This document shows, one piece after another, positions 11,092 through 25,268 of a DNA stretch of 38,026 nucleotides. Position 1 is the first letter of the stretch, and the number at the start of each line of letters is the position of its first letter. The stretch comes from Clostridia bacterium (GTDB taxonomy: Bacteria; Bacillota; Clostridia; Oscillospirales; Acutalibacteraceae). Under the pieces are notes generated by a model. The model made no database searches, had not been told where the DNA came from, and worked only from the letters and a program-made list of their open reading frames with translations. Position numbers and translations under genes: made by a program. Location: assembly GCA_017623615.1 (NCBI GenBank), contig JAGAOT010000016.1, positions 1 to 38,026 on the forward strand. Reading direction: 5' to 3'.

Positions 11092-11583
11092 TCATTTTTT
11101 GGGCATCGGGCGGCGTTTCGCCGTGTATTTGATAACATCAATGCGGATAACGCTGACGATTTCCGCCATTTTATCCTCAAAATCAAAGTCCTTGCCCGTC
11201 TGCGTTTTCATCAAAACGGAAAGAGCAAGCTTTTTTTCCTCGATATCTTCAACGATTACGGCTTTGCCTCTGCCCATAACGGATTCGTATGTTATGCCGT
11301 AGCGGCAGGCAATATCGCCCTCAAACGGGGTGATTCCGCAGTCCAGCTCGAAGAAAACCTTGGGGTTTGCTCTTATCAAATCGAGCTTGCGGCCTCTGCG
11401 TGCGCCGTGAAGATAAACGGTCAGCTTGCCGTCAACCATGGTGTAGCCGTAATTCATCGGCACAACATAGGGCTCGTCGCCGTCAACCAAACCGAGATGG
11501 AGCACCTTTGCCGTGTCAAGAATGCTTTTGATTTCGTTGATGTCTGTTACTTCCCGCTCTCTGCGGGTCATACCGTTGCTCAT
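11092..11583 (-). CDS. NimA-like pyridoxamine-5'-phosphate-oxidase-family flavoprotein
   Basis: A 163-residue split-barrel protein: VLHLGLVDGDEPYVVPMNYG, then VYLHGARRGRKLDLIRANP, VFFELD and the C-terminal VIRIDVIKYTAKRRP. This matches the NimA-related branch of FMN-binding PNPOx-fold proteins, small reductases of anaerobes, some linked to nitroimidazole reduction; the natural substrate is generally unknown. The ATG at 11583 has AGAGGAC spaced five bases upstream, better than the GTG at 11628, which runs into the ATATCGC repeat at 11619-11638. It is followed tightly by the acyltransferase gene. Resistance should not be assumed from family membership. Confidence 0.85.
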   Translation of the reverse strand: MSNGMTRREREVTDINEIKSILDTAKVLHLGLVDGDEPYVVPMNYGYTMVDGKLTVYLHGARRGRKLDLIRANPKVFFELDCGITPFEGDIACRYGITYESVMGRGKAVIVEDIEEKKLALSVLMKTQTGKDFDFEDKMAEIVSVIRIDVIKYTAKRRPMPKK

Positions 11584-11618
11584 AAGAAGTCCTCTTTTCT
11601 GTTTAATAAATCTCGTTA

Positions 11619-11638
11619 CCGCGCACATATCGCAAATT
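11619..11638. repeat. 20-bp direct repeat, left copy, beside the four-helix-bundle cassette
   Basis: Twenty bases (beginning CCGCGCAC, containing ATATCGC, ending AAATT) are repeated exactly at 12149-12168 within the array. The pair flanks the four-helix-bundle gene and most of its array, 530 bases apart. This copy lies one base beyond the gene's stop and carries the only GCGATAT-type linker found outside the array. Confidence 0.85.
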
Positions 11639-11639
11639 A

Positions 11640-11993
11640 TTATTTGCTGTTATTCTTTGCGGTGGTTACAGAAGCAATCAGCTTTCTTCTTATTACACCG
11701 CATTTGTTTATCAAAGCTTTGTATGTAGCTCCATCAATCGTATTAACCTTAAACAATATTTCCAACCAATATTCTGTTTCATAACATTCTTTAAGCGCGA
11801 TTTCCATTTTATTAATAAAATCTGCTCTGCTTTGGGCATATCTAGCTTCGTGTGAATTGGCACCGATTGAAGAGCAAGAACGAAGCAACTGATTAGTAAA
11901 AACTGAACGCCCTTTAATATTATCACAAACAGCGGTTATTTCAACAATCAGTTCCACCGCCAATTCTTTTATTGACATTGATTTAGTTTCCAT
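11640..11993 (-). CDS. Four-helix bundle protein (23S rRNA IVP/Avd-like), copy 1
   Basis: A 117-residue, all-helical protein with the family core QLLRSCSSIGANSHEARYAQ, then DFINKMEIALKECYETEYWL and a C-terminal RRKLIASV helix. This is the TIGR02436-type four-helix bundle family, first seen in 23S rRNA intervening sequences and related to the Avd accessory protein of diversity-generating retroelements; Avd-type proteins form pentamers and bind nucleic acid, but the function of stand-alone members is unknown. The ATG at 11993 follows AGAAAGGAAACACC. Directly upstream lies an array of eight GCGATAT/ATATCGC linkers and hairpins that reaches the rlmD stop codon. A paralogue at 24696-25046 shares 35 of 47 residues over the central segment and has the same kind of upstream array. 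Confidence 0.92.
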   Translation of the reverse strand: METKSMSIKELAVELIVEITAVCDNIKGRSVFTNQLLRSCSSIGANSHEARYAQSRADFINKMEIALKECYETEYWLEILFKVNTIDGATYKALINKCGVIRRKLIASVTTAKNNSK

Positions 11994-12007
11994 GGTGTTT
12001 CCTTTCT

Positions 12008-12188
12008 GCGATATATTTGCTTTTGCAAATGCGATATAACCTCACTTTGCTCGGTTGCGATATAGGCTCGCTTCGCTCACCTGCGATATGATATAAATTC
12101 TTTAATCTCGTCCCGCAGGGACATATCGCACCGCAGGTATATCGCGTGCCGCGCACATATCGCAAATTCTTTTAAGAATTTATATCGC
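12008..12188. repeat. 4+4 linker-hairpin array upstream of four-helix-bundle copy 1
   Basis: Four GCGATAT linkers (12008, 12031, 12057, 12083) are followed by four inverted ATATCGC linkers (12123, 12139, 12157, 12182). Between them are short palindromes of differing sequence: ATTTGC/GCAAAT (12015-12030), AACC/GGTT (12038-12056), AGG/CCT with an inner GC/GC (12064-12082), GTCCC/GGGAC (12110-12122), ACC/GGT (12130-12138), GTGC/GCAC (12146-12156) and AAATTCTT/AAGAATTT (12164-12181). Linkers of opposite halves are complementary, so the whole array could fold into one long stem bearing side hairpins. It fills the space from the rlmD stop codon, which is inside the last linker, to the ribosome binding site of the four-helix-bundle gene. 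Confidence 0.93.
12149..12168. repeat. 20-bp direct repeat, right copy
   Basis: An exact copy of 11619-11638. It consists of part of the GTGC/GCAC hairpin, the seventh linker and the first bases of the next hairpin, so the repeat outside the gene is one unit of the array. Confidence 0.85.
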
Positions 12189-13547
12189 TGAAACCGTACG
12201 CACTAAAAGTGCGGCGGTTTCACAATGCCCCGTGCGCGGGAAAAGGTCAACGGGAGTTGCTTTTACCGCCGTGTAGCCGAGGTCCTTGAAAATTCCGCAG
12301 TCGCGGGCAAGGGTTGCGGGGTCGCAGGAAACATAAACAATTTTTTCGGGGCACATTTGCGCCGCCGTTTTTATCATGTCGGGGCTGCAGCCCTTTCGGG
12401 GCGGGTCAAGAATAATCACATCGGGTCTAGCTCCCTCGTCTTTGAGCATCTGTGCCGCCTGCGCCGCGTCCGCGCAGATAAAACGCGAGTTTGTTATGCC
12501 GTTTATCTCGGCATTTATCTTTGCATCCTCAACCGCTTCGGGCACTATCTCAACGCCGATAATCTCCTTGGCATTTTTCGCCATGGAAAGCCCGATTGTG
12601 CCCGCTCCGCAGTAAAGGTCCATAACCGTTTCGCTGCCCGTCAAGCCCGCATACTCCGCCGCTTTGTTATAAAGCTTCTCCGCCTGATTGCGGTTAACCT
12701 GATAAAATGACAGCGGTGAAATGCGGAATTTCAGCCCGCAGAGAATATCCGTTATATAGTCGCTGCCCCAAAGAGTGCGGCACTTATCGCCGAGGATAAC
12801 GTTGGTATCCTTGGTATTGATGTTAACAACGATGCTTTTTATCGCTTTTTCTTTTTCAAGCAAAGCGGCAACCAGCTTTTCTTCCGCAGGCAGCTTTTTG
12901 CCGTTGATGACGGCGCAAACCATTATTTCTCCGCTTGCGCTTCCTTTTCTTATATAAACATGGCGCAAAAGCCCGCGGTGAGCCGTTTCGTCATAGACGG
13001 AAACACCGTTTTCTTTGATATATTGCGCAAAAACAGCAAGAATGCCCTCAAATTCTTCGGGCTGCAGGCGGCAGTCGGGGCAATGGACAACGCGGTGGCT
13101 GTGGGGCGAATAAAATCCCGTTTTTATCTCGCCGTTTTCAAATGCAACGGGATACTGCGCCTTGTTGCGGTAGCGGCTGTCGGCCTCCGCGGCAATAATC
13201 GGCTCAAATTCGGGCATAACTCCGCCGATGCGCTTGAAGCATTCGGCAACATGCGCCGCCTTGAGCTTTGACTCTGCTTCATACGTCATATGCAAAAAAA
13301 CGCATCCTCCGCATTTAAGATAAACGGGGCATTCGGGCTCAATTCTGTCTGCAGAGGGGGTTATAACGCTTTCAACCTTTGCAAAGGCATAGCTCTTTTT
13401 GACCTTGAGAATATGCGCGGTTATTTCGTCACCCACCGCCGTTGCGGGCACGAAAATCGCCATGCCGTTATGCCTGCCCACACCGCTTCCGTTAACGGAG
13501 CAGGAATCTATTTTTAAATTAATTCTGTCATTCTTTTTGAGTTCCAC
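12180..13547 (-). CDS. rlmD: 23S rRNA (uracil-C5)-methyltransferase, RlmD/RlmCD-type
   Basis: A 455-residue RNA m5U methyltransferase of the TrmA/RumA family. An N-terminal TRAM domain (about residues 1-60) is followed by iron-sulfur Cys motifs CPVYLKCGGC and HCPDCRLQ. The SAM-binding fold carries VMDLYCGAGTIGLSMA, then IILDPPRKGC and the catalytic YVSCDPATLARDC. Members methylate uridines such as U1939 (and U747 in the dual-specificity Gram-positive RlmCD) of 23S rRNA; which sites are used here cannot be read, and non-rRNA targets occur in the wider family. The start is GTG at 13547 with GGAGG eight bases upstream. The last codons and the TAA come from a GCGATAT linker of the neighbouring array, suggesting the array replaced the original 3' end. 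Confidence 0.92.
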   Translation of the reverse strand: MELKKNDRINLKIDSCSVNGSGVGRHNGMAIFVPATAVGDEITAHILKVKKSYAFAKVESVITPSADRIEPECPVYLKCGGCVFLHMTYEAESKLKAAHVAECFKRIGGVMPEFEPIIAAEADSRYRNKAQYPVAFENGEIKTGFYSPHSHRVVHCPDCRLQPEEFEGILAVFAQYIKENGVSVYDETAHRGLLRHVYIRKGSASGEIMVCAVINGKKLPAEEKLVAALLEKEKAIKSIVVNINTKDTNVILGDKCRTLWGSDYITDILCGLKFRISPLSFYQVNRNQAEKLYNKAAEYAGLTGSETVMDLYCGAGTIGLSMAKNAKEIIGVEIVPEAVEDAKINAEINGITNSRFICADAAQAAQMLKDEGARPDVIILDPPRKGCSPDMIKTAAQMCPEKIVYVSCDPATLARDCGIFKDLGYTAVKATPVDLFPRTGHCETAALLVRTVSAI

Positions 13548-21767: not shown

Positions 21768-22460
21768 ATGGTTTATATAACCGGCGATATGCACGGCGAT
21801 ATTTCCCGCTTTGATTCGCCCGCAATCAAGCAGCTAAAAAAAGGCGACACCCTGATTGTCTGCGGCGATTTCGGCTTTGTTTGGGATAACAGCAAATACG
21901 AGCAGAAAATCCTCAAAAAGCTCGGCAACAAAAAATTCAATATCTGTTTTATAGACGGCACTCACGAAAACTTTGAGCTTCTCAACGCCTACCCCGTAAC
22001 GGAATGGTGCGGCGGCAAGGTGCACCGCATCTGCGGCAATCTTTACCATCTCATGAGAGGTCAGATTTTCAAGATTGACAACATGACCTTCTTCACCATG
22101 GGCGGCGGCGAAAGCCCCGATATCGACATCCGTTTTGAAGAAAATGCGTGGTCGAGATATGAATTTCCCAGCCGCGAGGAGCTTCTGGAGGGCGCGGCAA
22201 ACCTTGAAAAGCTCAACTGCCGCGTGGATTACGTTATCACCCACGAGCCGCCCGTTAAAATCAAGGGATTTTTAAAGCTTAAGGACAGCGAAACCGCAAG
22301 CGTAACGGGTCTTAACACCTATCTTGAGGAGCTTTCCGAGGCATGCGTTTTCAGACGCTGGTTTTTCGGCTCGATGCATCTTGACAAATACATTTCCAAT
22401 TCCCATGTTGCGGTTTTCCAGAATGTTATCAACGCAATAACAGGCGAGGTGCAGAGATAA
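21768..22460 (+). CDS. Calcineurin-like metallophosphoesterase
   Basis: A 230-residue protein with the two-metal phosphoesterase motifs in order: ITGDMHGD, IVCGDFGFVWDN, a modified GNHE motif (IDGTHENFE), ITHEPP and a modified GHxH (GSMHLD). Members hydrolyse phosphomonoesters or diesters of proteins, nucleotides or RNA; the substrate is not evident. No signal peptide. The ATG at 21768 follows AAAGGAGTAATTCC. The stop overlaps the start of the M24 peptidase gene (TAATG), indicating translational coupling. Confidence 0.88.
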   Translation: MVYITGDMHGDISRFDSPAIKQLKKGDTLIVCGDFGFVWDNSKYEQKILKKLGNKKFNICFIDGTHENFELLNAYPVTEWCGGKVHRICGNLYHLMRGQIFKIDNMTFFTMGGGESPDIDIRFEENAWSRYEFPSREELLEGAANLEKLNCRVDYVITHEPPVKIKGFLKLKDSETASVTGLNTYLEELSEACVFRRWFFGSMHLDKYISNSHVAVFQNVINAITGEVQR

Positions 22461-24695: not shown

Positions 24696-25046
24696 TTATT
24701 TTGATTTTATTGTTTTAAGTGAAGCAATTAACATTCTTCTGATAGCCCCACAATCATTTTGTAACTTTTTATATTTTTCTTCAGTCATACATTCGGTTTC
24801 AAAAAGAAGTTCCAGCCAATATTCTGTTTCATAGCATTCTTTTTGTGCTATTTCCAGCTTTGATATAAAATCCTTTGTTCCTTGAGCATATTGTGCTTCG
24901 TGTATGTTCGCACCGATTGATGTTGCTGAACGAAGAATTTGATTTATTAAAACCGATTCTTTGCGATTTGTTTTCAGCTCTCTGCAAAGAAAAACAATTT
25001 CCTTGGCAAACTCTTTAGCCTTATCTCTTAAAATGCTGTCAGCCAT
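24696..25046 (-). CDS. Four-helix bundle protein (23S rRNA IVP/Avd-like), copy 2
   Basis: A 116-residue protein of the same family as the one at 11640: QILRSATSIGANIHEAQYAQ, DFISKLEIAQKECYETEYWL and IRRMLIASLKTIKSK. Over the central 47 positions 35 are identical to copy 1. The ATG at 25046 has AGAGGTGG upstream, better than the GTG/ATG-like starts further out that run into the array. The upstream array of eight AGTNNTATT-type linkers reaches the stop of the DUF3298 lipoprotein gene. The arrays of the two copies share architecture but not linker sequence. Function unknown; RNA or DNA binding is inferred from Avd and intervening-sequence relatives. Confidence 0.92.
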   Translation of the reverse strand: MADSILRDKAKEFAKEIVFLCRELKTNRKESVLINQILRSATSIGANIHEAQYAQGTKDFISKLEIAQKECYETEYWLELLFETECMTEEKYKKLQNDCGAIRRMLIASLKTIKSK

Positions 25047-25093
25047 AAAAGCCACCTCTATATGAAAAATACAGAAAACAATATGATTTTTCA

Positions 25094-25264
25094 AGTGATA
25101 TTCTGCCTGTCGGCAGAGTTTTATTATTGCCTTCGGCAATAGTTTTATTGAAACTTTCAGTTTCAGTTATATTTTATTCGCAAAAAACTTGCGAAGCAAA
25201 TACCACTATGCGAAACATAATATCACTGCGAAGCAATATAACTCGCCGTAAGGCGAATAAAACC
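25094..25264. repeat. 4+4 linker-hairpin array upstream of four-helix-bundle copy 2
   Basis: Four direct linkers (AGTGATATT 25094, AGTTTTATT 25117 and 25141, AGTTATATT 25165) are followed by four inverted ones (AATACCACT 25199, AATATCACT 25219, AATATAACT 25235, AATAAAACC 25256). All fit AGTNNTATT or its complement except the last, which ends ACC. Between them are hairpins: CTGCC/GGCAG, ATTGCC/GGCAAT, GAAACT/AGTTTC, a central TTCGCAA/TTGCGAA (25177-25195), ATG/CAT, GC/GC and CGCC/GGCG. The array begins about 47 bases before the copy 2 start and ends four bases from the lipoprotein stop codon. Confidence 0.93.
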
Positions 25265-25268
25265 GGCG

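What the first reader, a model, noticed from the sequence alone, without database searches (positions are those of the whole stretch)
11640..12188. Four-helix-bundle gene preceded by a symmetric 4+4 linker-hairpin array
Eight 7-bp linkers, four GCGATAT and four inverted ATATCGC, alternate with seven small hairpins of unrelated sequence over 181 bases. Stem sequences differ while pairing is kept, so structure rather than sequence appears conserved. The two halves are complementary, so the array can also fold as one branched stem in DNA or in the mRNA leader. It fits exactly between the upstream stop codon and the ribosome binding site of a four-helix-bundle gene whose relatives (23S rRNA IVP, DGR Avd) act with nucleic acid. 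I know of no described function for this pairing; the structured array as the protein's ligand or mobility substrate is inference.
Basis: partly seen in the sequence, partly recalled or inferred. Interest (0 to 1): 0.9.

Follow-up and report, generated by a model that had tools for sequence, protein, structure and literature searches.

The report
Hairpin arrays paired with four-helix-bundle genes
A small gene of unknown function sits behind a mirror-image row of DNA hairpins joined by eight copies of one 7-letter word; the same design, with other words and other hairpins, recurs in many gut bacteria and looks like a little-known family of mobile or selfish DNA.

Summary
Confirmed: 8 exact linkers (4 GCGATAT, 4 ATATCGC) and 7 hairpins fill 12008-12188, between rlmD and a TIGR02436/PF05635 four-helix-bundle (4HB) gene. 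Comparison goes further. (1) The left half is the orphan Rfam family Gut-1. (2) A 4+4 array precedes 76 of 81 close 4HB relatives (controls 24/301, shuffles 4/208). The linker differs by lineage, but its copies change together and follow the protein; stems covary. (3) Loops obey the rule for very stable single-stranded DNA minihairpins (GNA/GNNA), on opposite strands in the two halves: DNA rather than one RNA. (4) Arrays abut hairpins such as tRNA terminators and mostly lack the gene: 76 of 80 strong Gut-1 hits in the genus. (5) 4HB genes without the array are flanked by period-7 tandem repeats (73 of 87; threshold chosen post hoc), inverted across the gene in 24 of 26. Best reading: selfish/mobile DNA whose heptamers the encoded protein recognises. 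Recognition and the means of movement are inferred; no jump and no consistent target duplication was seen.

The parts
11640..11993 (-). four-helix-bundle gene (TIGR02436 / PF05635 23S_rRNA_IVP), 117 aa
   Evidence: TIGR02436 87.1 bits, cut-off 24; PF05635 77 bits, cut-off 33.8; solved relative 2RLD, 5 chains, E 3.2e-22
12008..12188 (-). dyad-symmetric array: 4 x GCGATAT + 4 x ATATCGC alternating with 7 hairpins
   Evidence: covariation in 12 arrays of the same class
12118..12190 (-). left half of the array: match to Rfam RF01706 Gut-1, 27.4 bits, E 0.0037, full model 1-77, below the gathering score of 50
   Evidence: none at gathering
12090..12109 (-). centre, complementary to linker 1 + hp1 5' arm (GATATAAATTC / GAATTTATATC)
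   Evidence: 99.2% of cells paired, covariation score 0 of 500 shuffles, pairs with double change 3 of 11 (20 of 500 shuffles reach 3)
12189..12222 (-). hp0: imperfect hairpin formed by the rlmD 3' coding end, abutting linker 1
12180..13547 (-). host gene rlmD; its stop codon uses the last base of linker 1
   Evidence: TIGR00479 431.8 bits, cut-off 183.55
11619..11641 (-). likely remnant of a second left half behind the gene (hp1 3' arm - linker - hp2), 96% identical to 12149-12171
   Evidence: D1; downstream left halves in other elements
12000..12007 (-). ribosome-binding-site-like AGAAAGGA next to linker 8
   Evidence: function not tested
24702..25046 (-). second 4HB gene of the window (54% identical to the first)
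25095..25263 (-). array of the second gene, GTTATAT/GTTTTAT-like linkers, 7 linkers detected with at most one mismatch, 2 exact
   Evidence: Gut-1 46 bits (below gathering) at 25195-25265

Best explanation
The array and the four-helix-bundle gene are one selfish/mobile DNA element of the 23S_rRNA_IVP (S23p) family. SHOWN by comparison: (a) genes of this family sit among gene-specific 7-nt repeats, often inverted across the gene; in some Clostridial branches the heptamers are spaced by hairpins, giving the 4+4 array, whose left half is Rfam Gut-1; (b) the heptamers of an element change together and follow the protein lineage, while hairpin sequences turn over and pairing and loop rule are kept; (c) the loops follow the rule for very stable single-stranded DNA minihairpins, on the strand that reads outward from the centre; (d) arrays mostly lie directly 3' of hairpins, occur in many copies without the gene, and are present or absent at orthologous sites. 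INFERRED: when the DNA is single-stranded (most simply on lagging-strand templates or an extruded cruciform) each half folds into three or four minihairpins that leave the 7-nt linkers exposed in series; the ring-shaped protein binds these linkers and brings strands together, so that host replication or repair copies the element to another hairpin-forming site. Gene-less arrays would be non-autonomous copies. Which enzyme cuts or copies DNA is unknown; the protein matched no nuclease or polymerase family.
For: Array before 76 of 81 close relatives; other genes of the same loci 24/301 (some of them real further arrays), shuffles 4/208. Mantel r 0.695, 0 of 2000 permutations; nearest protein neighbour has the same linker in 72 of 81, 0.158 expected. 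Spacers pair: 181 of 202 and 178 of 237, shuffled 28 and 35; covariation. Left loops equal the reverse complement of right loops (cosine 0.85 against 0.035). Outward strand: GNA 87 of 146 triloops, GNNA 64 of 96 tetraloops, other hairpins of the same loci 14 of 197 and 12 of 202; GNRA 32 of the 64. Outward strand G.T 34 against A.C 8, p 7e-5. Hairpin abutting the array 55 of 76 against 16 of 76 and 3 of 76. Solitary copies 76 of 80; nine copies in one genome, mean identity 0.81. Occupied and empty sites. Period 7 at array-less 4HB genes 73 of 87; upstream only 64 of 86 against 15 of 148 other genes of the same loci and 1 of 86 shuffles; 24 of 26 inverted across the gene.
Against: No jump observed, no excision product sought, no consistent target-site duplication (4 of 83, control 1 of 72). 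G100 (completeness 100, 21 Gut-1 matches) has no TIGR02436 match, so supply in trans is not shown. Linker and protein are physically linked, so their correlation is expected from co-inheritance and does not prove binding. G.T and A.C counts are small. A strict tandem-repeat test found only 6 of 87, and an 8-mer count did not separate the phylum-wide set from its controls (15 of 28 against 7 of 19). The window's own array could be transcribed with rlmD.
Confidence: 0.5

Rival explanations
1. Regulatory site: the array is an operator or leader through which the 4HB protein controls its own gene, in DNA where the promoter follows the array and in mRNA where it does not; the alternative pairing of the centre with linker 1 + hp1 is a switch.
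For: An upstream array is regular in close relatives (which looked upstream only); a mutually exclusive helix is kept; the gap from array to ATG is regular within a class.
Against: 76 of 80 strong Gut-1 hits in the genus have no TIGR02436 gene beside them; the place relative to the promoter is not constant; the two halves carry the fold on opposite strands, which one leader RNA does not need.
Confidence: 0.17
2. Structured non-coding RNA (as Gut-1 was described): the array, or its bottom strand ending at a bidirectional terminator, is transcribed and works with the 4HB protein as an RNP.
For: Gut-1 is rated 'Y' (certainly RNA) in PMC2864571 (table and passages seen); 37 of 42 tRNA sites with an array have an A-run that would give a T-run on the bottom strand; the G.T excess could be G.U.
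Against: GNNA loops lack the purine preference of RNA GNRA loops (32 of 64) and no tetraloop is TNCG; the signal flips strand at the centre; in 56 of 76 arrays linker 1 is 0-1 nt from the hairpin, leaving no room for a promoter there.
Confidence: 0.17
3. By-product: palindromes and heptamers are made and kept perfect by replication slippage and template switching, without function; the 4HB gene is a passenger.
For: Hairpin sequences turn over while pairing stays, as template-switch repair of quasi-palindromes would give (recalled mechanism); the second arm of hp0 at rlmD tracks the host's own codons.
Against: Does not explain the 4+4 plan, the loop rule, equal linkers around unrelated hairpins, or the tie to one protein family.
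Confidence: 0.09
4. REP-like element moved by a RAYT (Y1) transposase.
For: A RAYT-like gene stands at hp0 + linker 1 in L331, and one follows a half array in L376.
Against: The detector finds a half array upstream of 1 of 30 RAYT loci (of 42 places found); G100 has no RAYT match at E<=1e-10.
Confidence: 0.03

Closest known systems
Rfam RF01706 Gut-1 RNA (Weinberg et al. 2010, PMC2864571; passages seen)
   Same: The left half of these arrays: at or over the gathering score before the 4HB gene in L062 (66.9), L086 (59.6), L073 (52) and L107 (50.0).
   Different: Described as a free RNA of the human gut; here half of a dyad, with some copies tied to 4HB genes and DNA-type loops on the opposite strand. 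Not every linker class is matched: L109 and L050 score 30.9 and 29.5, and the arrays of L058, L060 and L093 gave no match at E 0.1.
23S rRNA intervening sequences that encode S23p (Coxiella IVS, PMC4990558; passages seen)
   Same: Same protein family; called a selfish element with complementary ends that form a stem-loop; tandem heptamers (GACAGAT) upstream of the frame.
   Different: Not in rRNA here; placed behind terminators and rlmD ends; heptamers separated by hairpins; many gene-less copies.
REP/REPIN elements with RAYT genes (recalled)
   Same: Dispersed palindromic dyads with few cognate genes whose type follows the repeat.
   Different: Partner here has no recognised nuclease; the conserved part is a 7-nt linker repeated eight times.
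Avd of diversity-generating retroelements (recalled)
   Same: Four-helix-bundle protein said to act with structured nucleic acid.
   Different: No reverse transcriptase or variable repeat was looked for; no comparison with Avd was made.
Heptanucleotide repeats of cyanobacteria (STRR/LTRR, recalled)
   Same: A Nostoc plasmid 4HB gene is followed by a long GCGACTT-type heptamer run, inverted relative to one upstream (L391).
   Different: No hairpins between the heptamers.

Membership tests
TIGR02436 / PF05635 23S_rRNA_IVP | Sequence over the curated model cut-off | tested here: met
   87.1 bits against 24; 77 bits against 33.8
TIGR02436 / PF05635 23S_rRNA_IVP | Pentameric ring of four-helix bundles | not tested
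   Relative 2RLD has five chains in its entry; PMC4990558 reports a homopentamer for the Xanthomonas protein; no model was made
Rfam Gut-1 (RF01706) | Score at or above the gathering threshold | tested here: not met
   Window 27.4 bits against 50; sister arrays meet it in 4 of 9 loci searched
23S rRNA IVS element | Located inside a 23S rRNA gene | tested here: not met
   The window copy lies behind rlmD; no Rfam match in the window at gathering score
MITE / TIR transposon | Terminal inverted repeats | tested here: inconclusive
   Heptamer arrays inverted across the gene in 24 of 26 array-less 4HB genes; array-bearing elements carry the dyad upstream, a few a direct left half downstream
MITE / TIR transposon | Target-site duplication | tested here: not met
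   4 of 83 with a repeat of 12 nt or more across the element, control 1 of 72
REP/RAYT system | Y1 HUH transposase as partner | tested here: not met
   Half array upstream of 1 of 30 RAYT loci
Diversity-generating retroelement | Reverse transcriptase with template and variable repeats | not tested
   Only five proteins of the window were scanned, none a reverse transcriptase
Riboswitch / leader RNA | Located in the 5' leader of the regulated mRNA | tested here: inconclusive
   Promoter-like pair between array and gene in 22 of 36 long-gap and 3 of 40 short-gap elements

The most novel reading that the evidence does not exclude
The 23S_rRNA_IVP four-helix-bundle family as a whole is the protein half of a so far unnamed class of mobile DNA that spreads by displaying 7-nt words in single-stranded DNA: heptamer arrays, bare or interleaved with DNA minihairpins, are both its ends and its address, and the protein needs no nuclease because it works on host replication forks. 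Rfam Gut-1 is a piece of this DNA, not an RNA.
Probability: 0.3. Interest if true: 0.93.

Novelty: new variant of a known kind. Interest (0 to 1): 0.82.

Why it matters
Proteins of this family have no known function according to the Coxiella IVS paper (PMC4990558, passages seen). The link between the family and gene-specific 7-nt repeats, often inverted across the gene, gives a concrete ligand to test, and the hairpin arrays are its most ordered form. If DNA is the working form, a curated RNA family would need to be re-read, and there would be a natural system built from the same GNA/GNNA minihairpins that chemists use to stabilise DNA aptamers (PMC4686876, passages seen). It would also make testable how a selfish element can spread with a partner that has no recognised nuclease.

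Tried and rejected
Array as a general property of TIGR02436: rejected, 36 of 92 in genus/family and 3 of 30 phylum-wide; presence of an array needs 12 changes on a tree of 197 proteins (54 or more in 50 label shuffles), so it belongs to some branches. Array only in the mRNA leader: rejected as a rule. RAYT as partner: weak. Target-site duplications: not consistent; of the 4 found, one is the downstream left half of L068 and two (L071, L084) are the terminator in front of a further array. Symmetric terminators as a special target: not distinctive, 47 of 62 terminator-like tRNA ends classed as array-less have the A-run too, and some of those printed do have arrays that the detector missed. Plasmids hold nothing like the window's array DNA by blastn. 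Tandem repeats: the strict test gave 1 of 59 and 5 of 28, controls 4 of 284, all 4 with period 7; the looser test was chosen after that, so its threshold is post hoc, and other genes of the same loci also show some period 7 (15 of 148). Copies of one 8-mer: 30 of 58 against 2 of 56 in the genus/family set, but 15 of 28 against 7 of 19 phylum-wide. The canonical linker list, the detector cut-off and the hairpin rules were likewise set after looking at examples, and rows are related, not independent. Two broken genes (L003, L294) entered the gene tables as two pieces each. Literature: searches listed no paper on arrays or heptamers at 4HB genes except the Coxiella paper; the library lacks most subscription papers and all bioRxiv preprints. 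Structure prediction was not run.

Full report
What is there. On the minus strand of the window, between the 3' end of rlmD (12180-13547) and the ribosome-binding region of a 117-aa four-helix-bundle (4HB) gene (11640-11993), eight exact 7-nt linkers, four GCGATAT and four ATATCGC, alternate with seven hairpins over 12008-12188. The rlmD stop codon uses the last base of linker 1. The protein passes TIGR02436 and PF05635; its one sequence relative among solved structures is 2RLD. The window has a second such gene with its own array (24702-25263), whose linker differs and is degenerate. The assembly holds five TIGR02436 genes, one with an in-frame stop (L003); L003 has an array with yet another linker, while L004 and L005 are not among the detector-positive genes.

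It is a recurrent architecture. A detector that looks upstream for one 7-mer in direct then inverted order finds 6 or more linkers in 76 of 81 genes of that set, in 36 of 92 genes found by profile in the same genus and family, and in 3 of 30 sampled across the phylum. Upstream regions of other genes in the same loci score so in 24 of 301 (several are real further arrays) and dinucleotide shuffles in 4 of 208. The 208 gene pieces were distinct by sequence; 5 of them, brought in by other searches, were kept apart; two broken genes count as two pieces each. On a tree of 197 proteins the presence of an array changes 12 times, at least 54 times in 50 label shuffles.

Linkers move as a set and follow the protein. 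83 of the 208 have at least four exact canonical linkers, two or more on each side: GTGAAAT 22, ATGAAAT 18, GTGAAGT 12, GCGATAT 10, TCGATAT 7, GCTAAAT 5, ATGATAT 4, others 5. A further 31 detector-positive genes did not meet that rule and were left out. Across 81 distinct proteins, linker mismatches correlate with protein distance (Mantel r 0.695; 0 of 2000 permutations), and the nearest protein neighbour has the same linker in 72 of 81 (0.158 expected). Co-inheritance predicts this, so it does not by itself show binding; what is unusual is that separated copies change together while the hairpins between them are nearly all different (172 distinct of 202 left spacers, 223 of 237 right).

Pairing is conserved. 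181 of 202 left and 178 of 237 right spacers form a stem of at least 3 bp (28 and 35 after shuffling). In an alignment of 12 arrays of the window's class 92% of cells at 26 hairpin pairs are paired and 19 pairs have changes on both sides, 0 of 500 shuffles as high; 'further pair types' is reached by 36 of 500. The centre is complementary to linker 1 plus the hp1 5' arm, a pairing exclusive with hp1: 99.2% of cells paired and covariation score 0 of 500, but 3 of 11 pairs with double change are reached by 20 of 500 and the number of pair types by 373 of 500. Over all classes a complement of 8 nt or more is there in 53 of 80 arrays (controls 4 of 72, 2 of 80, 5 of 80).

The left half is Gut-1. 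In e-value mode Rfam matches RF01706 Gut-1 over its full length at 12118-12190 (27.4 bits, E 0.0037), below the gathering score of 50. In 9 related loci, arrays before the 4HB gene reach 66.9 (L062), 59.6 (L086), 52 (L073) and 50.0 (L107) bits; L109 and L050 reach 30.9 and 29.5; those of L058, L060 and L093 gave no match at E 0.1. The right half is hit on the other strand in L062, L086 and L107. The 2010 paper (table and passages seen) marks Gut-1 'Y' as RNA, 'n' as cis-regulatory, human gut only. A search for 'Gut-1 RNA' found no paper in the held library.

DNA rather than one RNA. Loops of the left half are the reverse complement of those of the right half (cosine 0.85 against 0.035 for the same strand). 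Read 5' to 3' outward from the centre (bottom strand on the left, top on the right), 87 of 146 triloops are GNA and 64 of 96 tetraloops GNNA; the closing pair is C-G in 130 of 151 and 108 of 162 hairpins; 32 of the 64 are GNRA and none is TNCG. Other hairpins of the same loci give 14 of 197 and 12 of 202. Ten solitary arrays show the same flip on the top strand: right half GNA 13, TNC 1, GNNA 7, TNNC 0; left half GNA 0, TNC 8, TNNC 8, but GNNA 3. GNA or GNNA loops with at least two G-C pairs are the published rule for very stable DNA minihairpins (PMC4686876, passages seen). Isolated stem mismatches agree: on the outward strand G.T 34 against A.C 8 (left 13 against 2, right 21 against 6). This last signal would also fit two divergent RNAs.

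Where arrays sit. The 45 nt before linker 1 fold (RNA parameters) to -12 kcal/mol or better in 55 of 76 arrays (16 of 76 further upstream; 3 of 76 by shuffled mean), with the hairpin base 0-1 nt from linker 1 in 56 of 76; some first linkers were miscalled. Arrays follow 42 tRNAs of 13 amino-acid types in the loci in hand. At the ends of rlmD or close homologues, 17 of 18 with a detected array fold at -15 kcal/mol or better and one (L037) at -10.7; three more carry an undetected, half or remnant array (L054 -24.6, L144 -12.2, L239 -9.6); of 26 without a detected array none reaches -15, the lowest being -14.5 (L252, itself perhaps a decayed array). The two groups come largely from different lineages and include paralogues. 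By eye the second arm follows each species' own codons. L259 is a half array without such a hairpin. Elements behind a T-run more often keep 30 nt or more between array and gene (32 of 41 against 14 of 39; p 2.4e-4); 22 of 36 elements with a gap of 40 nt or more have a promoter-like pair there.

Copies without the gene, and empty sites. In 45 genomes of the genus, own included, Gut-1 is found in 39 and TIGR02436 in 32. The Gut-1 search scored 81 candidates per genome, so its counts are lower bounds; its control also rang, below cut-off, in E. coli. Of the 80 Gut-1 hits over the cut-off, 4 lie beside a TIGR02436 match, judged by comparing the two lists. G100 (completeness 100) has 21 Gut-1 matches and no TIGR02436 match; nine of its copies average 0.81 identity (0.51-0.96), some in tandem and with shared flanks, so not all independent. 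At one locus with 92-94% identical flanking protein, a half array is present in G000, G071, G078 and G063, a short remnant in G070, none in G062, G084 and G076, another repeat in G080 and G068, and a RAYT-like gene in G072. Behind rlmD, in front of the window's next gene, G069 is empty, G080 has a half array and the window the full element; G062 and G077 have other DNA without an array. Downstream of the 4HB gene the detector finds a direct left half in 7 of 83 elements (control 2); six look real by eye (L038, L043, L047, L068, L095, L102), and the window has a remnant.

The family behind it. 4HB genes without the hairpin array are not bare. Of 87, 73 have a tandem repeat of period 7 in a 300-nt flank at threshold 0.55 (54 at 0.6, 34 at 0.65); no other period from 5 to 12 exceeds 8, and 109 control stretches have none of period 7. 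With controls from other genes of the same loci, upstream only: 64 of 86 against 15 of 148, and 1 of 86 shuffles. Where both flanks have it (26, one broken gene counted twice) the units are inverted in 24, direct in 1, ambiguous in 1. The stricter test found 6 of 87 (controls 4 of 284), and an 8-mer count did not separate the phylum-wide set from its controls. A Nostoc and a Treponema plasmid gene show such repeats by eye, and the Coxiella IVS has heptamers before its S23p frame (PMC4990558). The 7-nt linker of the array is thus most simply the heptamer of the family, with hairpins placed between copies.

Reading. I take the element for a selfish or mobile DNA of the IVP/S23p kind that settles beside hairpins, with a protein that recognises its heptamers in single-stranded DNA. 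Dispersal, structure, loop rule, site preference and period 7 are shown by comparison; recognition, the single-stranded intermediate and the means of copying are inferred. Against it: no jump seen, no consistent target duplication, solitary copies where no 4HB gene was found, and small numbers for the mismatch signal.

Noticed in passing
L331:930-1481: A RAYT-like transposase (NF047646, 60.9 bits, below its cut-off of 80) starts right after hp0 + linker 1 at a site where relatives have a half array.
   Followed up: partly
L095, within about 760 nt downstream of the 4HB gene: Array - 4HB gene - second array - another small ORF - third half array: a cassette-like series.
   Followed up: no
L225, L226: A half array (L225) or array (L226) with a promoter-like sequence stands in front of other genes (a small membrane-protein-like ORF in L225).
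   Followed up: no
L332, L336, L353 (xyl-ox intergenic region): A different repeat-like sequence occupies the same intergenic site in other genomes.
   Followed up: no
L212, L214, L215, L218, L219 (G100): A second repeat (AACGAGCGATACGAAGCTTGCGACGAC) accompanies solitary arrays and duplicated tRNA ends in units of about 275 bp.
   Followed up: partly
L162, L163: Solitary arrays beside different tRNA genes in two genomes share nearly the same tail of about 50 nt beyond the array.
   Followed up: no
L389 (MT835815.1) and L390 (MT835590.1): Two unannotated faecal 'Bacteriophage sp.' records carry a 4HB gene with the same kind of array; in L389 it follows a tRNA-like sequence, so the records may be chromosomal contigs.
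   Followed up: partly
window 21784-21802: Two GCGATAT 12 nt apart at the start of an ORF; not looked at further.
   Followed up: no
window 11092-11628: Neighbouring ORF resembles Nim-type reductases, far below the family cut-offs (51.8 bits against 260).
   Followed up: no
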